Source: a virus
Length of the DNA stretch: 64,000 bases
Reading direction: 5' to 3' (one strand)
Virus record (IMG/VR): IMGVR_UViG_3300032282_006300
Location: 59,831 to 123,830 of that record
The position numbers were made by a program, and so were the translations under genes. The stretch's first letter is position 1. Each line of letters begins with the position of its first letter. Shown piece by piece: positions 1,659 through 64,000 of this stretch. The notes under the pieces are model-generated. The model was given only the letters and a program-made list of their open reading frames with translations. It did not search any database and was not told the DNA's origin.

Positions 1659-1881
1659 CAATACCTCTCAGCAATTCAATTTCATCATCGGGAGAAAATG
1701 ATTGTTTTTCGGTAACATCATTTGTTACAAAAGTAACGATAATCATGGATACGTGCCCTAAACTAGAATTGGCATTGTTAATATTGGTAACATAACTTCT
1801 ACCAAAATCTGTTTTAATAACTTGACCTTTTTTAATATCGCCAGCAAGAATTATCAAAGGGGTTTGGCGTTCTTCAGACAT
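1651..1881 (-). CDS. Hypothetical small beta-rich protein
   Basis: A 76-residue protein. The pattern of alternating hydrophobic residues (QTPLIILAGDIKKGQVIKT, then VSMIIVTFVTND) suggests a small beta-barrel or SH3-like fold, but no family is identified. The ATG at 1881 overlaps the TGA of the multi-enzyme gene (GTGATG) and GAGGGGG lies upstream, so it is translated in tandem with that gene. Confidence 0.55.
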   Translation of the reverse strand: MSEERQTPLIILAGDIKKGQVIKTDFGRSYVTNINNANSSLGHVSMIIVTFVTNDVTEKQSFSPDDEIELLRGIDE

Positions 1882-4800
1882 CACTGCGCCCCCTCTTTTT
1901 TATCAATACCAAAACGGGCATTTACAAGAGGTTGCCATAAACCTTTTTGATCTAAATATTTTTCGGCGGCATTGCGGTAGTCAAAAACCCCGCGACCAGA
2001 AGGTTTGAATGCGCCCTTGCGAGATTCGTGGATAAATTCCCACAGTTGTCGGGCACGGCGGTTGCGGGAAGGTTCTGGCAACTTGAGAATGTTCTCAATT
2101 TCTACAGCCAATCCTTCAAAATAATACCATTCGCTTTGATTAAACTGGTGACCTTCTGGTGCCTCAATCGGTCGCACTGCCCATTCATCGTCAGTTAAAT
2201 TATAAGCCGCGTAAGGTTTTAACACACTAATATCGTAAGAATGGGGATTGACGTAAAAAGTAGCAGACCAAGGGCCAACCTTAATTTTTCCACCAAATGG
2301 TTCACCGTTCCATTCCCATTCTGGAATGCCAATAAAAGGCACATTAAAATATGCTTCTTCAATGTTGCAGTGTTCGCGTAATTCTGCATTCATATGTGCA
2401 GAAATTTTTTCAGGAGACATTGTTGCAAATTGTGGATTGCTTTCAATCAAACCACCGTATTCAATTCCAATCAAGGTATCAAGATCATCATTAAGATGGT
2501 ATCCTTGAGATGCGCCGATTTCAGGATTTTTTACTGCGCTAGGATCTGCCCACCATTGGCTTACAGAAGAACCGGCAATATAAACTTTACTCCAGTTTTT
2601 CCATTCTTTGTATTGGCTGTCCCATAATTCAGCAATACGGTTTATAATGGATTCACGAATTTCTGGGCGAATCTTGTCATCTTCAAAAAGACGTGGATCT
2701 AGGCTACCAATAGTTGGCGCAAACAAGCGCTGGTTAGGTCGCCAAGAATCAAGGACTGCATTGCGTTCATTTGCATTCTTAGAAGCATGTGGGTGAAGTG
2801 TTTTTACAAGGTGGTCATGCCACGCCCTGCCTTCACTTGTTTTACGATTTGAATGAATAGGTTTGGTGTCGGCTAAACCTAACATGTGTGCTTCGTGCGC
2901 TTTTGTAAGCATTGTAGTAGCGATACCGTGATATTGATATCCTGGATCTACTTCAATCCAATCAATCTCACCTGGAGATAATTTAGAAAGATCGTCTCCA
3001 TGTCGATCTGTCCATGATAATACTCCAATTTGTTCGTTATTATGATGGACAGTTATTCTATGAGAACCTCCCTTTTCCGGCGATTCTTTAAAGCGATATT
3101 CAATATTTTGTGGGTGAGGGGCATTACTCATATTTTGTGTATAAGTTTTATTTGCCTCATCTAAATTTTTTTGAAAATCTAAAAATGCATCTTCAGATTT
3201 ACTTTTATAATACTCGTTTTCATGTTTATTTATTGCATTTTGAAGACGGGCATCTTCCTGTTTTTTAATAGTCAGGAAAGGATCTTCATCACTAGCAAAA
3301 TGCTGGAGTAGGCTTAGGCTTGGAGGTAATGAAGACACCCACGCTTCACCGTCATCACTCAGGATATCTGAGTGCTGGGGTTTAGTAATTGCTCTACCAG
3401 AATAATGGGCATCGCGAGCCTTTTCCATCATTTTTGTAGCAATACCATGACGTTGATATTCATCATCCACGTCAATGTTGCTGATTTCACCAGAAAAATA
3501 GCCAGAACTATATTTATCGTGGGTATCAGTCGCCCAACGAAGGTTGCCAACTTGTTTGCCATCATGGTTCGCAGTTACTTCATGCATGCTGCCAACCGTG
3601 CCAACAGCGCGATAAAACTTGTATTCTACGTTCATTGGGTGTGGTGCTTTTCGCATATTTTGTATATAAATTTTGTATGCATTTGAAAATTCTTCATTAG
3701 AACCACGCTTTGCCGCATTAAGTTTAGCCTTTTCCTGCTTTTTAATCGTCAGAAAAGGATCTTCATCACTAGCAAAATGCTGGAGTAAGGAAGCCAAGGT
3801 GGGATTTTTTTCAACCATGCGGTCATACCATGCTTGACCTTGAGTGGTTTTGTGATCGGAATGTTCAATACGTGTACTGGCATCACCAAATTCGTAAAAT
3901 TCCCGAGCCTTTTTAATAAGATTAGTAGCAATGCCATGACGTTGGTATTCCGGGGTTACTTGGATGTGGCCAATTTCCCCAGGAAAAAGACTATGACGTG
4001 TTTTTTTTTCATCATTAGCCCAGCGAACATGACCAACTTCTTCGCCATTATGGTAAGCAGTTACTTGATGCATTTGGTTTCCACCATGTTCAGAACGTTT
4101 ATTAAATTCGTATTCTACGTTCATTGGGTGTGGGGCTTTTCGCATATTTTGTATATAAATTTTGTATGCATTTGAAAATTCTTCATCAGAGCCACGCCTT
4201 GCCGAATTAAGTTTGGCATCCTCTTGCTTCTTAATTTTCAAAAAAGAATCTTCATAACTGGCAAAATATTGTAGCAAGGAAGCCATCCTTGGGTCTTTTT
4301 CAACCATGCGCTGATGCCATGCACGGCCTTGATCGGTTTTGTCATCGGAATGTTCAGCGCGAGTACTGGCTTCACCGGATTCGTAAAATTCCCGAGCCTT
4401 CTTGACAAGATTAGTCGCAATGCCATGACGTTCGTAAACAGGAATTACGCCGACGTATCCAATTTCTCCAGGAAAAAGTTTACGATGTGTTTGTATTTGA
4501 TCATTGGCCCAACGAATATGACCAACTTGTTCGCCATTATGGTGAGCAGTTACTGCATGCAATTGTTTTCCACCATGTTCAGAATATGAATGAAATTTGT
4601 ATTCTACATTTTGTGGGTCGGGGGCATTTTGCATTTGGGTACTAAAACGACTTAAGGTAGCAAAACGTTTTCTTTTTTCACGGCGCACAATTTCGGCTCG
4701 GCCACTATTTTCGTGCTCGTCTTCCGCATCACCAATTTTATCGTTTGCAATTTTCCTGGCTTCATCTAAAGAATCGTTGGCCTTTTTCATAGCAATATCG

Positions 4801-6206
4801 TATTTTTTTGCGTGGGGATCAAAAACATTTTCTGCTGCAGCATAAGCAGCGTCCCGCTTGTCCCTGTGGGGTTGCAGTTCCGCCAATAGTGCCTCTTGGC
4901 GTGCATTGTAGGCTTGTTTATGTGGCTCAAGTTCGGCGTTGGCTTCATCCATTGCTTTGTTGTGCTTAACTAAATAATCATCAAGGTTTTTATCAGCATT
5001 TGATTTTGCTTGATCAAGAATTTCTTTGTGCGGGCGAATTGCTTCCATTGCATCCGCAACGGCTTTTTTGTGTTCTGGACTATCTATAGAAAATGTTTGG
5101 TCAGCATGTCTTAGGGAACGACTAAATTTTTCTGAATGGGGGCCAAACGCAGCACCGGCGTTTCTTATTTTTGATTTGTGTTTATTTTCTTCATCAATAC
5201 GTTCATTTTTGAGTTCTTCTGTTTTGATTGTGTGTGGTTTATATTTTTCAAAAGCCTCGTTTATTAGACCCATAATGCGATCTTCGTGCGGAGCAAATTC
5301 TTTATTAGCCTTTTCTATAGAATCCCACCATACCCCACGGTGAACACTTAATTTTTGGTCAATTTCGAATTTGATTGGCCTTTGTTTTTCAAAAACAGCA
5401 TCGTATTCGGCCCTAGCAGCATTTCTAGCCGATTTAAGGGGGCGCTCAGCCTCTTCAATAACCGCATCATGCTTCTTATTGGCCCTATCCAACTCAAACT
5501 CGGCATTGGCCTTAGCCCGCAAGAAAGGATCTACACCTTCAGCAAAGAACTGGAACAGGTCGTTATCCGCAGCCTGGTAGAAGAAATCAACTACGCTGGC
5601 TTGAGCCTGGTTACGGCGCTTTACGGCACGAACAGAGCCATCGGAGCGTGCACTTACTTCTTGATTTTTTCCGCCTTTAAATGATATGTGATGCCAAGAA
5701 GGTTTCTCTCCCCAAAAACCAAACTCCCGAAAATCATCTGCATCAGTAAAAAGATCTTTGGCTTTTACAGTTGCACGAATTACGGGCCAATCATTCTTCG
5801 GATCTTCTTGCTTTCCGTGCTGGCGTGCATATTCTTTGCTAATAGAAACCCAATCTCCAGGTTTAATACCGTGATGTGCTTTTTCTGCGGGTAGCGATCG
5901 GTAAATGCGAATTTTTGTTTCAGGGTTATTGCGAATACGGCGCAAAATGTTGTGGGCTTCCCGGTTAGACGGCTCACTCATGTCTGAGTAGTAATGTGGG
6001 TGGGTATAAACATTCGCTGGCACACCTTGGGTTAAGTCCCAGGCGGGGATGCCCCCTTCAGGATCTCCGGGCCGGTGTGCCCAACCATAAGAATTGTCGG
6101 CAGTTGCCTTAACCCGCAAAAAAGGATCTACACCTTCAGCAAAGAACTGGAACAAAGATGCGTGCATAAACTCGGTCTGGCTAACCGTTTCATTCATCTG
6201 TTCCAT
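1881..6206 (-). CDS. Giant multi-enzyme protein: ADP-ribosyltransferase + 4 GNAT acetyltransferases + nucleotidyltransferase
   Basis: A 1441-residue polydomain protein. Residues about 35-185 look like an ADP-ribosyltransferase: R in KIRIYRSLP (103), the strand WVSISKEYA (119-127) and E161 in DDFREFGFW match an R-S-E type active site. Residues 230-510 are a charged, helical region with PH-containing repeats. Four GNAT-like acetyltransferase domains follow (about 533-640, 697-803, 860-960, 1034-1137), each with the acetyl-CoA loop as [RY]HGIAT. Residues 1205-1330 look like a nucleotidyltransferase (GSS at 1212-1214, DLD at 1241-1243). Domains are separated by five copies of a 15-residue motif ending in D[PS]FL. 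By analogy with T4 Alt, a packaged and injected host-modifying protein is plausible (inference). It follows the large terminase and carries the late-gene element. Start at 6206 or the next in-frame ATG at 6197. Confidence 0.75.
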   Translation of the reverse strand: MEQMNETVSQTEFMHASLFQFFAEGVDPFLRVKATADNSYGWAHRPGDPEGGIPAWDLTQGVPANVYTHPHYYSDMSEPSNREAHNILRRIRNNPETKIRIYRSLPAEKAHHGIKPGDWVSISKEYARQHGKQEDPKNDWPVIRATVKAKDLFTDADDFREFGFWGEKPSWHHISFKGGKNQEVSARSDGSVRAVKRRNQAQASVVDFFYQAADNDLFQFFAEGVDPFLRAKANAEFELDRANKKHDAVIEEAERPLKSARNAARAEYDAVFEKQRPIKFEIDQKLSVHRGVWWDSIEKANKEFAPHEDRIMGLINEAFEKYKPHTIKTEELKNERIDEENKHKSKIRNAGAAFGPHSEKFSRSLRHADQTFSIDSPEHKKAVADAMEAIRPHKEILDQAKSNADKNLDDYLVKHNKAMDEANAELEPHKQAYNARQEALLAELQPHRDKRDAAYAAAENVFDPHAKKYDIAMKKANDSLDEARKIANDKIGDAEDEHENSGRAEIVRREKRKRFATLSRFSTQMQNAPDPQNVEYKFHSYSEHGGKQLHAVTAHHNGEQVGHIRWANDQIQTHRKLFPGEIGYVGVIPVYERHGIATNLVKKAREFYESGEASTRAEHSDDKTDQGRAWHQRMVEKDPRMASLLQYFASYEDSFLKIKKQEDAKLNSARRGSDEEFSNAYKIYIQNMRKAPHPMNVEYEFNKRSEHGGNQMHQVTAYHNGEEVGHVRWANDEKKTRHSLFPGEIGHIQVTPEYQRHGIATNLIKKAREFYEFGDASTRIEHSDHKTTQGQAWYDRMVEKNPTLASLLQHFASDEDPFLTIKKQEKAKLNAAKRGSNEEFSNAYKIYIQNMRKAPHPMNVEYKFYRAVGTVGSMHEVTANHDGKQVGNLRWATDTHDKYSSGYFSGEISNIDVDDEYQRHGIATKMMEKARDAHYSGRAITKPQHSDILSDDGEAWVSSLPPSLSLLQHFASDEDPFLTIKKQEDARLQNAINKHENEYYKSKSEDAFLDFQKNLDEANKTYTQNMSNAPHPQNIEYRFKESPEKGGSHRITVHHNNEQIGVLSWTDRHGDDLSKLSPGEIDWIEVDPGYQYHGIATTMLTKAHEAHMLGLADTKPIHSNRKTSEGRAWHDHLVKTLHPHASKNANERNAVLDSWRPNQRLFAPTIGSLDPRLFEDDKIRPEIRESIINRIAELWDSQYKEWKNWSKVYIAGSSVSQWWADPSAVKNPEIGASQGYHLNDDLDTLIGIEYGGLIESNPQFATMSPEKISAHMNAELREHCNIEEAYFNVPFIGIPEWEWNGEPFGGKIKVGPWSATFYVNPHSYDISVLKPYAAYNLTDDEWAVRPIEAPEGHQFNQSEWYYFEGLAVEIENILKLPEPSRNRRARQLWEFIHESRKGAFKPSGRGVFDYRNAAEKYLDQKGLWQPLVNARFGIDKKEGAQ
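3270..6158 (-). repeat. Five copies of a 15-residue interdomain motif in the multi-enzyme gene
   Basis: Copies lie at 6114-6158, 5517-5561, 4236-4280, 3747-3791 and 3270-3314. Consensus is [SD]L[FL]Q[FYH]FA-x3-D[PS]FL. Each copy sits at a boundary: before the ADP-ribosyltransferase, before the coiled region, and before GNAT domains 2, 3 and 4. The last three copies are followed by an almost identical KIKKQE-type stretch and, in two cases, by NAYKIYIQNMRKAPHP, showing recent duplication of linker plus domain. Confidence 0.85.
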
Positions 6207-8651: not shown

Positions 8652-9071
8652 TTAATGATTGTGTGACTGCTTGGCCAATGCTTCCATCATTGCCTTGTCC
8701 GCCTTAATGATACCACCGGTACCAAGATCCAAAATGTCATTAGTGACCTCGTGAACCTGACGGTCTCGGTCAAACACAAATTTGTTTTCGGTACGACCTT
8801 TGATGACAATTTCAGGCATCTTAACTTCTGCCATGTTCGTTTCATACCAAAGAACATCTACAACAAAGCCAATTTCGTAGAAACGTTCTTTAATCTCACG
8901 CTGAAAAGAATCATATTCAATACTGCCTTGCGCTGTACGCGCTTTGAGCATATTCAAAATTTTTTCAATCTCGAGAATTTCAGTATCGTGGATGTCCATA
9001 GTTTTAGTGACATCGTCAGCACCGGCATATCCACCTTCTGGCGGGGTTTGACCTAAAATAGGGATATTCAT
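8652..9071 (-). CDS. Hypothetical protein upstream of terminase
   Basis: A 139-residue protein with a helical middle (EILEIEKILNMLKARTAQ) and a mixed C-terminal half that includes PEIVIKGRTENKF. The ribosome site AAGGAAACTAA precedes the ATG. It lies between a possible small terminase and the large terminase. No family recognised. It could be a packaging or head-associated factor, but this is only positional inference. Confidence 0.6.
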   Translation of the reverse strand: MNIPILGQTPPEGGYAGADDVTKTMDIHDTEILEIEKILNMLKARTAQGSIEYDSFQREIKERFYEIGFVVDVLWYETNMAEVKMPEIVIKGRTENKFVFDRDRQVHEVTNDILDLGTGGIIKADKAMMEALAKQSHNH

Positions 9072-9080
9072 TTAGTTTCC

Positions 9081-9791
9081 TTAACTTTCTATGATTTCTG
9101 CATCTTGGATTGGCTCAATTGCAACTATTTTTTGAGCCTGAGTAATTGCGTCTTGATTTAGTTTTTCTCGCAAAGCAAGCATGATTGGATGTTGCTCAAT
9201 CTCTCGCCCGTATTCGGATAACATATCAATTGGAATATAGCGCATCGCTACATCCATGTGAACCATGAGAACATCGCGCCAAACTTGAACGTCAACGTTT
9301 TCATCCATATCTTTGTCTAGTTGTTGAAGCAGTCGGGCCGCCGCAATAACTTCTGTAACTGAGGGTTCAGCGGTGCCGTCACGCAACATCTCATAGCCAC
9401 GTTGAACAATCATCCGGGCTACAAGAGTTTTGTCTACAACAACGTCTTCATCTTCTGATAGATTTTGACCAATTGCCTCTCGGTGTTGATCAAGCATTGC
9501 TTGTCGCAATTCGTCGGTAAGAGACAAATGCTTATTTTTTCTGTGCGAAGCAATAGATTCCGCACTGGGAAAATCAATGGGGTCTTCCCCAGCAATGGTA
9601 GTGAAAGGCCTCAAGTGTCCTAAAATTGTCGGAGCAGACAATCCCGAAGCAAGTCCTTCTTCGATCTGGTCACGGTAAGGACTTTGACAAGTGTGGCATT
9701 GAGGCACACTTCTTTTGGTTTCATAAATACGATTGCCTGGAAGTGCTGTTCGCACTAAAGAATTGATTGTAAAATCTTCATCATCGCTCAT
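9081..9791 (-). CDS. Zinc-finger/helix-turn-helix protein, possible terminase small subunit
   Basis: About 236 residues from the ATG at 9791 (an upstream in-frame TTG at 9806 is an alternative). Near residue 30 it has CHTCQSPYRDQIEEGLASG followed by SAPTILGHL, which reads as a Cys-Cys-His-type metal site plus a helix-turn-helix. Similar layouts occur in DNA-binding phage proteins encoded beside terminases. The rest is acidic and helical. Its place three genes upstream of the large terminase suggests a DNA-recognition role in packaging, but no diagnostic small-terminase motif is visible. Confidence 0.5.
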   Translation of the reverse strand: MSDDEDFTINSLVRTALPGNRIYETKRSVPQCHTCQSPYRDQIEEGLASGLSAPTILGHLRPFTTIAGEDPIDFPSAESIASHRKNKHLSLTDELRQAMLDQHREAIGQNLSEDEDVVVDKTLVARMIVQRGYEMLRDGTAEPSVTEVIAAARLLQQLDKDMDENVDVQVWRDVLMVHMDVAMRYIPIDMLSEYGREIEQHPIMLALREKLNQDAITQAQKIVAIEPIQDAEIIES

Positions 9792-23172: not shown

Positions 23173-24476
23173 AGTAGTATTGCCTCTCTCATAGCGTTGA
23201 TAATTCCTTGTGGCGTTCGCCAATCCATTTCCCATGCTCGCAAATCTTCTCGCCTTGAAGCAAGAATTTGCAATGTTGCCTGAAAAACTTCTCTCTGTAT
23301 ATTACTCTGATAAAGCGAAAAAACCCAATCGGCGGCACGTTCAACTTCTGCGCCTTCCGCAAGCATATACATCTCAAACTTTCCTGTTTTTTCTGCGGCT
23401 TTAACACCTTCACGGTTGATCTGATGTGCTAAAACGCAAGGCATTTGATCTCGTCCTGTTGAGATGATTTGTTTTAACTCGCGCATAATGTCACCAATTA
23501 CAACATGACGACTGCGGTTAGCATTCGGGTTTGGGTGTTCAACAAAAGTAAGTTGATCAATGATGAGACTTTGTGCTCCGAGAGTTTGTGCTTCACGGTA
23601 CATAGATTCCGGCGTACGACGGCCGGGTTCTGGACTAATGATTCGCAAATTCTCTTTCAATTTTGGCAATTCATCATTTTGATACCAACGTACTCGCTCT
23701 TTATCTTCAGCAGAAAGATTTCCTCGTTGCCAATCTCGGCTATTGAGGCCAAGAGCAAAACAAACCAAACGGTCCACTGTCATTTCAATAGAGTTTTCCA
23801 AAGTAAACAAAGCCACAACCCGACCACGCATTGCCTCTTGCAAAGCAACGTAGTTCAAAAAGTAAGACTTGCCTGTTTTGGGCGGAGCCGCGACGACTGC
23901 GAGTTCTCCATCGTGAATTCCAAAAGTGTGAATGTCCACCAAAGGAATTCCAAAAGTTAAACCTCTGCTTGTGTTGCCTGCAATCTCTCGGCCTTCATAA
24001 AGGTTAAAACTCTCAGAAAAAATGTCTGCAAAATCCACACTGCGGTGACGAGGTTGCATATTCAAAGACAAATTCATCAAGCCGTCAATTTGCTCGTTGA
24101 GAACACGGATGCGATCAGGTGCCGAAGCAGAAGACATTGCCATAGCGGCGCTTTTTTGCCACTGCTGATACGTGTAATGAACATACTGGCTCTTTAAATG
24201 GTCAATAGCCCATTCAATGTTGTCAACCTGTTCATTTTCTGCCGGTACTTCAATCTCTGCATCTTCAAGATGTTGTTGCCAAACAGACATCAATGCGTTG
24301 CGAGAAGGTGCTTGTGTCCTACCTGATTCAAAGAAACGATCTAAAGACCAGGAAACTACGGGACGCAAGGCTTCAGTTGGGATGCACTCTAGATCCAAAC
24401 CTTCTTTAACCAAAGACTCAAGGGAGTCAGTGTCAAAAAGGGATGCAACAAGGGCGACTTCAGCCGTATTGCTCAT
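23169..24476 (-). CDS. dnaB: Replicative DNA helicase, DnaB-like
   Basis: A 435-residue ring helicase. The N-terminal helical domain (about residues 1-120) is followed by a RecA-type core with Walker A VVAAPPKTGKSYF (about 195-203) and Walker B SLIIDQLTF (about 303-308). Residues LAHQINREG near 345 match the sensor region. It would unwind DNA ahead of the DnaE polymerase and recruit primase. ATG at 24476 is preferred over the GTG two codons earlier because AGGTGG lies just upstream. It overlaps the helicase loader, its likely partner. Confidence 0.85.
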   Translation of the reverse strand: MSNTAEVALVASLFDTDSLESLVKEGLDLECIPTEALRPVVSWSLDRFFESGRTQAPSRNALMSVWQQHLEDAEIEVPAENEQVDNIEWAIDHLKSQYVHYTYQQWQKSAAMAMSSASAPDRIRVLNEQIDGLMNLSLNMQPRHRSVDFADIFSESFNLYEGREIAGNTSRGLTFGIPLVDIHTFGIHDGELAVVAAPPKTGKSYFLNYVALQEAMRGRVVALFTLENSIEMTVDRLVCFALGLNSRDWQRGNLSAEDKERVRWYQNDELPKLKENLRIISPEPGRRTPESMYREAQTLGAQSLIIDQLTFVEHPNPNANRSRHVVIGDIMRELKQIISTGRDQMPCVLAHQINREGVKAAEKTGKFEMYMLAEGAEVERAADWVFSLYQSNIQREVFQATLQILASRREDLRAWEMDWRTPQGIINAMREAILL

Positions 24477-25336
24477 GCCCACCTCAATGGTTCGACGATT
24501 TCGGGATTTTTGTTTTTCATTTCTTCGCTCATGGTTGCACGGAAATCTTTTCCAGTCATGCAGATAAAATCAGAAGATCCTGTAAGCCTTGAAATGATGT
24601 GCTTCTTGTACTTCTGTTCTAACTGTTCTGGCCTTAAATTCGTGGTCATCAATGTTGGAAGACCTGAGTTAATACGATTCTGGATAACAATGTCAAGTCC
24701 ATCAATGACTGAAGACTTTGAACGGTTCTCGGATTCAATACCAATGTCGTCAATAATGAGGACTTGGCAACTTGCGGCTTTCTTATAAAACCAGTCTCGG
24801 TCTTCGGCATCGCTCCAACCTTCCGCAAATGCGTCAAGCATCCGCGTAAAGGGAAAGAAGTATCCATCAAAGCCATTGACCATCAAACCTTTAAGAATCA
24901 AAGTTGCCAACAAAGTTTTGCCAACTCCATTGTTTCCGTAAAGAATGAGTCCACGACCGTTAGAAACATTCGCGTGGCAATTTTCAAGATACTCTAAAGC
25001 CGCCTGAGCCGCTTCAACATCAACCGCCTTCAGATCAGACCAAGACTTCTTTTGGTAATCAACGCCGATACCGGCATTGGTAAACCAAAGAGACAAAATC
25101 ATTTGCTCTAGGCAGTTGCAGTTGTACTCCACAACTTCGCCTTCAACAAGAGTCTTGAACCAGCCCTTGCCACCACAGGTGAGGCAAGTCTGTGAACGAG
25201 AACACCAAAGGGATTGGTTTTTTCGTCGAAGTCGTTCAAGTTCTGGATCGGTAATGATTCGTACTGTGGGCGGGTTGGGTGGCAACGTAAGTCGCTCTGA
25301 CACCGATTCTCCGTTCGTAGTTGTTTGGCGGAACAC
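24473..25336 (-). CDS. Helicase loader, DnaC-like AAA+ ATPase
   Basis: A 287-residue AAA+ protein. A zinc-binding region precedes the ATPase (CLTCGGKG, then YNCNC; about 51-75). Walker A is LYGNNGVGKT (132-141) and Walker B is VLIIDDIG (about 190-197); sensor-1 (TLMTTN) and an arginine-finger region (HIISRL) follow. DnaC-like proteins open and place the DnaB ring on DNA, and the helicase gene follows immediately with a 4-base overlap. The start is a GTG without a clear ribosome site, so an alternative start is possible. Confidence 0.85.
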   Translation of the reverse strand: MFRQTTTNGESVSERLTLPPNPPTVRIITDPELERLRRKNQSLWCSRSQTCLTCGGKGWFKTLVEGEVVEYNCNCLEQMILSLWFTNAGIGVDYQKKSWSDLKAVDVEAAQAALEYLENCHANVSNGRGLILYGNNGVGKTLLATLILKGLMVNGFDGYFFPFTRMLDAFAEGWSDAEDRDWFYKKAASCQVLIIDDIGIESENRSKSSVIDGLDIVIQNRINSGLPTLMTTNLRPEQLEQKYKKHIISRLTGSSDFICMTGKDFRATMSEEMKNKNPEIVEPLRWA

Positions 25337-30944: not shown

Positions 30945-31577
30945 TTAGTACCAGACGTTTTCTTGCTCAAATTCAAACTTGTCTAGCCATCTTAGCCGAT
31001 CAAATTGCAATTCTTCGCCTGTAGCCCCAATAACAAGTTCTACAAACTCTCCAATATTTTCTACTCTGCGGAACAAACCTTTTGCGTCCCTGTTCCAGCC
31101 ACGGTCCACCAGAAAAGGAACGCTTCCGGATTCTTCCAACGTTTTGTAATTAAACGCATTGTCTTCAATAAAAGCGTCTGTTTTAATTAGCGCTTTGTTT
31201 TCACTAAACGTAAGAGAATGAAAAGGAATCTCGTGTTTAAGAATCCATTTCATTGTTGTTAAAGCCGCTTTTTTAGGGCGAGCGGTAATGATGTGGATTT
31301 TGTGACCGGCTTCGTACAAACGATTAATTTGGTTTGCGGCGTCATCTATCAAAGGTCCATTGTAAGCAAAACCTTTAATAATTGCATCATCATGCAAATT
31401 TTCATAAGTTTCGTGATCAATACCCCATTCGGTAAAGAAATCATATTTAACTTCTAGACCATCAAAATCTTTGGGGATGTTGGGATCATTATTGTGTAAA
31501 AGATAATCGTAAAAAGACACGGCAAAATTATGAACTACGCCGTCAAGGTCTACCCCAATAGTGGCTAATGTTTTCAT
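30945..31577 (-). CDS. HAD-family nucleotidase (5'(3')-deoxyribonucleotidase-like)
   Basis: A 210-residue phosphatase. The catalytic motif is GVDLDGVVHNF near residue 8, with the two aspartates of motif I; motif II is HIITARPKKA (about residues 110-119); motif III/IV is FIEDNAFNY (about residues 149-157). This fits 5'(3')-deoxyribonucleotidases that trim nucleotide pools. I chose the ATG at 31577 with AGGAAAACG upstream; longer starts would overlap the proteasome-like gene. It follows the peptidase closely, and the holin is just downstream. Confidence 0.75.
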   Translation of the reverse strand: MKTLATIGVDLDGVVHNFAVSFYDYLLHNNDPNIPKDFDGLEVKYDFFTEWGIDHETYENLHDDAIIKGFAYNGPLIDDAANQINRLYEAGHKIHIITARPKKAALTTMKWILKHEIPFHSLTFSENKALIKTDAFIEDNAFNYKTLEESGSVPFLVDRGWNRDAKGLFRRVENIGEFVELVIGATGEELQFDRLRWLDKFEFEQENVWY

Positions 31578-31584
31578 CGTTTTC

Positions 31585-32124
31585 CTACTTTTGCTCGAAC
31601 TTGAAATATTGAACAGGCCCTTTGACTCCTGGACTAAATTCAGAGGCGGCCTTAATTGCTTTTGTAACTCGTGATTTTGGTGCGGTTCCTTCTGTGCTAA
31701 ATAAAGAACCAAGAGCCGAAGTGACTCCTCCGCCAATTGCGGCATAAGCATAAGGGGTTTCATAAACGCTGTAATCGTGGCATACAACAAACAAGCGACC
31801 CATTACGCCTACTAAAATTTCCGTTCCATCTTCCATTTTTTCTTCTGTGGCAACTCCTGCAAGATTATCTAACGTATCCGCAATAGATTGCACAAACTCT
31901 AAACACATAAACGAAGATAAATGTTGCGGAGAAGGTATTGGTGGCAATGAGACATTGTGTAGAACATTGATGACCCGAATACTTTGCGAAACACCAATGA
32001 TGTAATCCCCATTGATTGCAATTTTGGGGCTTACCATACTGACGGTAGAAGTGTCGTCGCTGACTTCAGAATCTGATGCCATATGGATAACATCTTTATC
32101 TATGAGACCGACAATACAAGTCAT
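31585..32124 (-). CDS. Proteasome beta/HslV-like N-terminal threonine peptidase
   Basis: A 179-residue Ntn hydrolase. Counting from Thr after the initiator Met, the triad of proteasome beta subunits is in place: T1 (TCIVGLI), D17 (HMASDSEVS) and K33 (VSPKIAI). The glycine-rich AIGGGVTSALGS later matches the family's active-site wall, and EFSPGVKGPV ends it. If Met is removed, Thr1 would be the nucleophile. It has no clear ATPase partner in this window, and the substrate is unknown. It overlaps the metallophosphoesterase by one base (TAATG). Phages with such peptidases are uncommon, so this assignment is notable. Confidence 0.75.
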   Translation of the reverse strand: MTCIVGLIDKDVIHMASDSEVSDDTSTVSMVSPKIAINGDYIIGVSQSIRVINVLHNVSLPPIPSPQHLSSFMCLEFVQSIADTLDNLAGVATEEKMEDGTEILVGVMGRLFVVCHDYSVYETPYAYAAIGGGVTSALGSLFSTEGTAPKSRVTKAIKAASEFSPGVKGPVQYFKFEQK

Positions 32125-33500
32125 TACAACATCACCAAGTCTGACCAGCCAAATCTGTGACCCGCCCCAACCAATACCGTTACGATTCCGTGCTTAGCAC
32201 TATTGCCAAACGCGGCTTCAAAATATGTAGACCCGCCATCTAAAGATGGGGATTGGAACAATGTTGTTCCGCCAATATCTGAAATAAAACCGTGGTGCTT
32301 GTGTCCCATAAACATAACTTCCATACGGATATTCTTGTCGTACAAGAACATACCTCTTTGGTCACGAGCCCATTTTTCAATTCCACCCTTGGCTTTGTGA
32401 CCATGAGTAAGTCCGCATTGAACACCCGAAAGATCAAAGAATGTCCACCACTCGTCGTGAGGAATGAACCATTCAACTTGATCGGCAAGATTGCTTTCGT
32501 CAATCACTTCTTTGACCTGCTCGGCAATAATCAAATCGTAATTGTCCGAATCTGAGGTAAACGGGGCCGAACCAATTCCTTGACGAATCTCACCGTGGTT
32601 GGATGGCGTGTAAACCTTCTTGATCGGAAGATCAAATTCCGCAAACATTCGCGTCTTGCGAATTTCTGATTGACGGGCATAAGACATTTGGTTACGCAAA
32701 GTAGTGGTGGTTTTTGCTTGGCTGGGATAGTGACCAAAAATATTTTCAATCTTGTCTCCAGTTACCACATCTGCAATGCATTCAATATTTACACCGCGGT
32801 GCAATAATTCTTTCAAACGATCATAACTTTTCTGAAGGGCTTCTTCTTCTCGTTTTTCAAGACCCTCAATGCCACCTCCAGCACTTTTACCACCTTGCTC
32901 GTCACCTTGCACGTGTGCGTAAGTAACTTGAACACCAAGACCTGTTCCAAGAGTTTTTCGAATAAGAGGTTGCCAAGTTTTGGCTTCGTTAATTGCGTTT
33001 TCAATGTCTTCATCAAATCGGGCTTGATCAGGAACGATCCGAGCAAAACGTGCTTTGTACGACCAAAGCCAAACAACGTCACGATCACCATCTTCTGTTC
33101 TCTTAGAAGATTGCCATTTTGAAACCCTAACCGTGTCGTCCATAACCCTGAAAGTTTTGGAAGAAAGTCCAAAAAATTCCAGCAGGGGTGCAAAATCACC
33201 GTCAAGTTCTACAGGAATTTGTCCTACGCCAACCGAAAGTTCTCCTTCATCTCCGGTAATGGATACATAAGTATCTTGGCTCGGTCCTTCGTATTCACCA
33301 ACAGGAACCTTTAATTCACCGAGATTATTTTTTTTGCGGTACTTACGTACCGAAGATTCTCCAACTTTAAAACCAAGTTTTTCAATTTTGTTCGCCACAT
33401 CAACATGCCCCAAAGACATGTCTTCCAAGAAGTTTTTTATTGCTGGTTGATCATCTGCTAAATCCGAAAGCGAATAGTTGTTCCCAAGGGTAAATGTCAT
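32124..33500 (-). CDS. Metallophosphoesterase with N-terminal helix-turn-helix
   Basis: A 458-residue protein. The N-terminal segment (DMSLGHVDVANKIEKLGF, then ESSVRKYRKK) is a helix-turn-helix. The calcineurin-like phosphoesterase core has metal-site motifs IADVVTGD (about residues 241-248), SNHGE (about 304), GLTHGHK (about 367) and FMGHKHHG (about 401). Such phage proteins have been suggested to act in DNA repair or tRNA/nucleotide processing; the true substrate is unknown. A long leader (33501-33741) precedes the gene. Confidence 0.7.
   Translation of the reverse strand: MTFTLGNNYSLSDLADDQPAIKNFLEDMSLGHVDVANKIEKLGFKVGESSVRKYRKKNNLGELKVPVGEYEGPSQDTYVSITGDEGELSVGVGQIPVELDGDFAPLLEFFGLSSKTFRVMDDTVRVSKWQSSKRTEDGDRDVVWLWSYKARFARIVPDQARFDEDIENAINEAKTWQPLIRKTLGTGLGVQVTYAHVQGDEQGGKSAGGGIEGLEKREEEALQKSYDRLKELLHRGVNIECIADVVTGDKIENIFGHYPSQAKTTTTLRNQMSYARQSEIRKTRMFAEFDLPIKKVYTPSNHGEIRQGIGSAPFTSDSDNYDLIIAEQVKEVIDESNLADQVEWFIPHDEWWTFFDLSGVQCGLTHGHKAKGGIEKWARDQRGMFLYDKNIRMEVMFMGHKHHGFISDIGGTTLFQSPSLDGGSTYFEAAFGNSAKHGIVTVLVGAGHRFGWSDLVML

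Positions 33501-35691: not shown

Positions 35692-40324
<4,633 letters not shown>

Positions 40325-57521: not shown

Positions 57522-57522
<1 letters not shown>
56122..57522 (-). CDS. Lectin-like tail fibre/adhesin
   Basis: A 466-residue protein. Residues about 40-215 look like a concanavalin-type carbohydrate-binding domain (PFEFNFDMNASGLADGFN, then GGAYGTWNLNS). A fibronectin-III-like segment follows (about 225-310), and the C-terminal 135 residues resemble a PPC-type domain (NDYFANATLLSG, VWFKWVPNA, DFDTYLFIYTG). All three are surface-binding folds, so it probably recognises host or capsular carbohydrate. It abuts the beta-propeller fibre gene with no gap. Confidence 0.7.

Positions 57523-59876
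<2,354 letters not shown>

Positions 59877-61069: not shown

Positions 61070-61070
<1 letters not shown>
60321..61070 (-). CDS. Beta-rich fibre-region protein
   Basis: A 249-residue protein rich in Gly, Thr, Tyr and Trp (MTTPVIRGYHNYSGWSVS at the start; STIVVGVGAVGPT at the end), the composition of small virion adhesins. It overlaps the collagen-like fibre gene by one base and is in the same transcript. No family recognised. Confidence 0.6.

Positions 61071-64000
<2,930 letters not shown>

What the first reader, a model, noticed from the sequence alone, without database searches (positions are those of the whole stretch)
31585..32124. Phage-encoded proteasome-like peptidase with an intact Thr1-Asp17-Lys33 triad
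Counting from Thr2 of the gene product, the residues at 1, 17 and 33 are T, D and K, just as in 20S beta subunits and HslV. The glycine-rich segment later is also as expected. A catalytically competent phage self-compartmentalising peptidase would be unusual. It may degrade host or phage proteins at lysis or evade host Pup-proteasome control. No unfoldase gene is present nearby, so it may use a host ATPase or act on unfolded peptides.
Basis: partly seen in the sequence, partly recalled or inferred. Interest (0 to 1): 0.72.

Follow-up and report, generated by a model that had tools for sequence, protein, structure and literature searches.

The report
Actinophage proteasome-like peptidase, known family
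This bacterial-virus gene encodes a small relative of the proteasome's cutting subunit with its catalytic threonine, aspartate and lysine intact; such genes are already known in many phages, though nobody has yet shown what they do.

Summary
The ORF at 31585-32124 (- strand, 179 aa, MTCIVG...) has T, D and K at positions 1, 17 and 33 counted from Thr2. This is homology, not chance: all three are invariant in a 76-sequence alignment, its profile finds BPH, HslV and 20S beta, and an AlphaFold2 model (pLDDT 94, pTM 0.90) matches BPH and HslV. It is not unusual for a phage: 27 GenBank phage records and 133 IMG/VR stretches encode relatives, PHROGs calls the family 'peptidase HslV family', and Fuchs, Alva & Lupas (2021) described phage-borne proteasome homologues. 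It best fits their AAH family. WhiB, an Mre11-like neighbour and the terminase point to an actinobacterial host, where the 2021 survey found no AAH phage. Competence is likely but unproven: the secondary 20S residues (Ser129, Asp166, Ser169) are absent, Ser129 being uniquely Gly here, and BPH, with an intact triad, is inert in vitro. No HslU/ClpX-type unfoldase was found in the 124-kb record. Lysis and Pup-evasion roles have no support. Most likely an unfoldase-independent ring peptidase with few substrates: a new member of a known, uncharacterised family.

The parts
31585..32124 (-). Proteasome-like (AAH-type, group I) peptidase gene, 179 aa, Met followed by the presumed nucleophile Thr1
   Evidence: phrog_1040 E=1.7e-16; profile to BPH/HslV/20S beta; model and Foldseek
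32119..32121 (-). Codon of Thr1
   Evidence: sequence; 76/76 in A5
32071..32073 (-). Codon of Asp17
   Evidence: sequence; 76/76 in A5
32023..32025 (-). Codon of Lys33
   Evidence: sequence; 76/76 in A5
31984..31986 (-). Gln46, possible counterpart of the oxyanion Gly47 of 20S (Gly50 of BPH); register uncertain
   Evidence: ungapped alignment with BPH; column counts
31729..31731 (-). Gly131, counterpart of 20S Ser129 (Cys 59, Ser 13, Gly only here)
32124..33500 (-). Upstream Mre11-like exonuclease with stop/start overlap TAATG onto the peptidase gene
   Evidence: phrog_284 exonuclease 1.6e-37; 478 of 479 phage records with a match are actinophages by name; overlap
30945..31577 (-). Downstream NT5C-type nucleotidase, part of the conserved gene order
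   Evidence: Pfam NT5C 2.9e-13; same order in L021
24473..25336 (-). Only AAA-type match in the record; DnaC-like loader, not an HslU/ClpX unfoldase

Best explanation
The gene encodes a phage member of the experimentally uncharacterised group I proteasome-like proteins, most probably the AAH family, in a tailed phage whose host is very probably actinobacterial. After removal of the initiator Met, Thr1 becomes the nucleophile, activated by Lys33 and Asp17. The subunit has both helix pairs used for ring contacts, no propeptide and no insertions, so it most likely assembles into a BPH/HslV-like double ring with inward-facing active sites. With no HslU/ClpX-type partner gene, it most likely works without a dedicated phage unfoldase on a narrow set of unfolded, exposed or peptide substrates during infection. 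Shown here: homology, predicted fold, invariance of the triad, lack of a partner gene in the record, conserved coupled gene order. Inferred: Met removal, ring assembly, hydrolysis, substrates.
For: phrog_1040 'peptidase HslV family' E=1.7e-16. T1, D17, K33 each 76/76. Profile matches BPH 6.6e-8, HslV 6.5e-7, 20S beta 1.1e-5. Model pLDDT 93.8, pTM 0.90 with helices 49-57, 66-88, 134-143, 149-163. Foldseek best matches BPH (TM 0.76) then HslV. Relatives in alphaproteobacterial genomes and many phages. No AAA_2 in the record; 3 of 50 relatives' records over the cut-off. Acidic 14-residue loop, net -4, at the pore-loop site, recalling the acidic loop of BPH, which also has no known unfoldase (PMC5777263, PMC8665760). 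WhiB E=9.4e-22, actinophage-type terminase and Mre11-like neighbour. TAATG coupling and gene order kept in L021 at about 50-64% protein identity, so the gene is maintained.
Against: No paper with activity or assembly data for an AAH protein was found. The Ser129 counterpart is Gly here, and Asp166/Ser169 counterparts are absent family-wide; in the 20S, Ser129 and Asp166 are described as a second triad needed for efficient proteolysis (PMC4792962). The oxyanion Gly47 column may be Gln. The AAH assignment rests on features and distribution: the published AAH alignment was not available, and only the seed among 396 actinobacterial genomes had a match at E<=1e-10, although PMC8665760 calls AAH most abundant in Actinobacteria.
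Confidence: 0.6

Rival explanations
1. It is a specific Ntn transferase or single-cut processing enzyme, not a ring peptidase: as in connectase, Thr1 forms an acyl-enzyme with one dedicated substrate.
For: Secondary 20S residues are missing and Ser129 is Gly; the oxyanion column may be Gln. R49 and P169 are invariant, which could mark a dedicated site. [quoted passage not shown]
Against: Connectase lacks H1-H2 and has a two-helix insertion; this protein has H1-H2 and no insertion. Closest fold is the ring-forming BPH.
Confidence: 0.18
2. It is a phage peptidase that docks on a host AAA+ unfoldase (for example ClpX, ClpC or Mpa) and redirects host degradation.
For: No unfoldase in the phage record while AAA_2 ATPases rang in all 14 control genomes.
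Against: No docking motif tested; PMC8665760 found no co-occurring AAA+ interactor; predicted pore loop is longer and more acidic than the short HslV one (PMC8665760).
Confidence: 0.14
3. It is a catalytically dead or very weak relic kept as a scaffold.
For: Unique Ser129 to Gly change; long stem in the tree; BPH is inert in vitro.
Against: T1, D17 and K33 are 76/76, including this divergent lineage; intact in both L001 and L021.
Confidence: 0.08

Closest known systems
[quoted passage not shown]
   Same: Compact group I subunit with H1-H4, no propeptide or insertion, found in alphaproteobacteria and phages
   Different: Here in a probable actinophage, where the 2021 survey found none; divergent lineage with Gly at the Ser129 position. 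Published AAH sequences could not be compared directly
BPH (betaproteobacterial proteasome homologue; PDB 5ovs, 5ovt, 5ovu)
   Same: Closest solved fold (TM 0.76), triad, Met-Thr start, acidic pore loop, no known unfoldase
   Different: About 18% identity; BPH keeps the Ser129 counterpart (Ser139) and a Gly oxyanion residue (Gly50)
HslV (ClpQ)
   Same: T1/D17/K33 in register, same fold, no Asp166 counterpart by the profile alignment
   Different: No HslU partner gene in the record; about 15% identity; pore loop longer than in HslV
[quoted passage not shown]
   Same: Phage-borne group I proteasome homologue
   Different: PPH has about 140 residues and lacks H2; this protein has 179 residues and a long second helix (66-88)
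PHROG 1040 'peptidase HslV family'
   Same: Direct match, E=1.7e-16
   Different: Broad family: its profile also rings in control genomes such as E. coli and Haloferax, so the name does not mean HslV proper

Membership tests
Proteasome-like (Ntn) proteins | N-terminal Thr/Ser nucleophile with Asp17 and Lys33 | tested here: met
   76/76 at each position
Proteasome-like (Ntn) proteins | Proteasome beta-type fold | tested here: met
   Confident model; Foldseek matches BPH, HslV, 20S beta
Proteasome-like (Ntn) proteins | Oxyanion-hole Gly47 | tested here: inconclusive
   Ungapped BPH register puts Gln46 there; a nearly invariant Gly43 is three residues upstream; no coordinates available
AAH | Compact group I subunit with H1 and H2, no insertions, no C-terminal S12/H5 | tested here: met
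   Secondary structure of the model against PMC8665760
AAH | Clusters with AAH sequences (KEGG OC.661151) | not testable with these tools
   Published alignment not held; relatives are alphaproteobacterial and phage, as expected of AAH
PPH | About 140 residues, no H2 | tested here: not met
   179 residues, helix 66-88
HslV | HslU partner encoded with it | tested here: not met
   No AAA_2 match in the 123.8-kb record; the record may be incomplete
Pfam PF00227 Proteasome | Score over the curated cut-off | tested here: not met
   11.6 bits against 22.4; a divergent relative
20S beta subunit | Second triad Ser129/Asp166/Ser169 | tested here: not met
   Gly, Ser and Val at these columns
Self-compartmentalising peptidase | Ring assembly with inward active sites and peptide hydrolysis | not testable with these tools
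   Only monomer prediction was possible

The most novel reading that the evidence does not exclude
The actinophage lineage (window protein, L001, L021) is a chemically altered AAH: without Asp166/Ser169 counterparts, with Gly at the Ser129 position in the window phage and a possible non-Gly oxyanion residue, it could catalyse a specific transfer or a single processing cut in infected actinobacteria instead of general proteolysis.
Probability: 0.13. Interest if true: 0.6.

Novelty: new member of a known kind. Interest (0 to 1): 0.3.

Why it matters
Phage proteasome homologues are widespread and no job is known for any of them. This example adds a very probable actinophage to the distribution, where a 2021 survey found no AAH. 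It offers a small protein without a partner gene for testing whether such rings work alone, and a natural test of whether the Ser129/Asp166/Ser169 network is dispensable.

Tried and rejected
Unusual-in-phages reading: rejected (PMC8665760). PPH: rejected on length and H2. Dedicated unfoldase in the phage: none found. Head-maturation role: in 32 of 77 viral relatives the gene lies within 6 genes of terminase, portal, S78 prohead protease or capsid genes, but after collapsing relatives at 60% identity (single linkage, conservative) the terminase adjacency is not significant (2 of 12 at offset -1, p=0.26), and many of those phages also carry an S78 prohead protease; no such role is claimed. Gly43 as the oxyanion glycine: first assumed, made doubtful by the BPH register. 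A single-protein scan of genome contigs found nothing; a 3-row alignment worked. A survey of 396 actinobacterial genomes found only the seed. No paper with experimental work on AAH or PPH was found.

Full report
Observation. The ORF at 31585-32124 (- strand) gives 179 residues starting MTCIVGLIDKDVIHMASDSEV. Counting from Thr2, positions 1, 17 and 33 are T, D and K, checked at codon level. The later glycine-rich stretch is AIGGGVTSALGSL. A second IMG/VR contig (L001) has the same protein with one conservative change and one silent change, so the ORF is not an assembly accident.

More than chance. PHROGs assigns phrog_1040 'peptidase HslV family' (E=1.7e-16); Pfam Proteasome is below its cut-off and no PDB chain is found with the single sequence. 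In a 76-row alignment of relatives (A5) T1, D17 and K33 are each 76/76; the rows were found by patterns that include the MTCI start, so T1 is partly selected for, D17 and K33 mostly are not. The A5 profile finds BPH (6.6e-8), T. maritima HslV (6.5e-7) and 20S beta (1.1e-5), with the triad columns and the GSG loop in register. AlphaFold2 on A5 gave pLDDT 93.8 and pTM 0.90. Foldseek ranks BPH first (E=7.2e-12, TM 0.76), then HslV, then 20S beta, and in the viral library finds phage proteins, one named HslV.

How common. tblastn finds relatives in 27 GenBank phage records (Vibrio, Moorella, Geobacillus, Tenacibaculum, Psychrobacter, Ochrobactrum, Microbacterium and others), many annotated as peptidase HslV family, proteasome subunit or Ntn hydrolase. 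A narrow pattern scan finds 133 IMG/VR stretches that encode relatives and 47 in GTDB genomes, mainly Azospirillum and other alphaproteobacteria. Fuchs, Alva & Lupas 2021 (PMC8665760) named AAH, PPH and CPH in phages and bacteria, and reported no suggestive gene context and no co-occurring AAA+ partner. The protein has helices 49-57 and 66-88, so it is not PPH, which lacks H2 and has about 140 residues. AAH is the best fit but could not be checked against the published alignment.

Host and gene context. The virus record is 123,830 bp. It encodes WhiB (E=9.4e-22). Its terminase matches Mycobacterium, Gordonia and Rhodococcus phages in nearly all of 215 records. The adjacent upstream gene is an Mre11-like exonuclease whose phage relatives are actinophages by name in 478 of 479 records. 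The host is therefore very probably actinobacterial. The 2021 survey stated that no Actinobacteria-specific phage with AAH was found. WhiB also occurs in the records of relatives L022, L023 and L080, and in DSL-LC01 and Pumpernickel, so several probable actinophages carry such genes; the last two are distant from the main body in the tree. Relative L021 (50% identity) keeps the order SNF2 helicase, Mre11-like, peptidase, NT5C and the same TAATG stop/start overlap.

Active site beyond the triad. The 20S Ser129 column is Cys in 59 rows, Ser in 13 and Gly only in the window protein; the Asp166 column is mostly Ser and the Ser169 column is Val in 75 of 76 (register). In the 20S, Ser129 and Asp166 are described as a proton shuttle; D166A prevents autolysis and catalysis, and D166N impairs activity (PMC4792962). 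HslV, which is active with HslU, lacks the Asp166 counterpart by my reading of the same alignments. The Gly47 oxyanion position is uncertain: ungapped with BPH it falls on Gln46 (Ser/Thr in most relatives), while an almost invariant Gly lies three residues earlier. R49 and P169 are invariant and unexplained. BPH, with triad, oxyanion Gly and Ser139, binds epoxomicin yet showed no peptidase activity (PMC5777263). An intact triad therefore supports a reactive Thr1 but does not prove a general peptidase.

Unfoldase. No AAA_2 match in the record; the only AAA match is the DnaC-type protein at 24473-25336. Among 50 relatives' records, 3 exceed the AAA_2 cut-off. The predicted pore loop AGVATEEKMEDGTE has net charge -4 against a family median of -1, a parallel to BPH's acidic loop.

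Evolution. In an 87-row tree the window protein and L021 form a well-supported pair (100/98) on a long stem (1.39 changes per column), apart from the main alphaproteobacterial/phage body; the root is only a midpoint and the bootstrap had not settled.

Verdict. A real, probably functional proteasome-family protein; a new member of a known but experimentally uncharacterised family. Its main points of interest are the probable actinophage host and the altered secondary active-site residues. Claims about lysis or Pup evasion have no evidence.

Noticed in passing
35692-36756, 57522-59876, 61070-63634 (- strand): Three proteins with long collagen-like G-x-T/P, GATG-type repeats, probably tail-fibre or appendage proteins.
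   Followed up: no
1881-6206 (- strand): 1441-aa protein with several internal repeats (HNGEQVGHIRW...GEIGYVGVIPVYERHGIATNLVKKA) that look like tandem GNAT acetyltransferase-type units; an unusual arrangement.
   Followed up: no
L021-L099, flanking genes: In 32 of 77 viral relatives the peptidase gene lies within 6 genes of terminase, portal, S78 prohead protease or capsid genes, on the same strand; terminase adjacency is not significant after dereplication.
   Followed up: partly
L054 5414-6001, L066 5402-6004, window 30945-31577: An NT5C-type nucleotidase gene is next to the peptidase gene in two phage groups (downstream in window and L021, upstream in L054 and L066).
   Followed up: partly
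L074 8597-9400, L008 4666-5379, window 32124-33500: A phosphoesterase or serine/threonine-phosphatase gene lies next to or near the peptidase gene in three phage groups; may be chance.
   Followed up: no
G060:C107:7783-8319 and 8662-9198 (L153, L152; Acidimicrobiia MAG of L142): Two AAH-type stretches in tandem on one contig.
   Followed up: no
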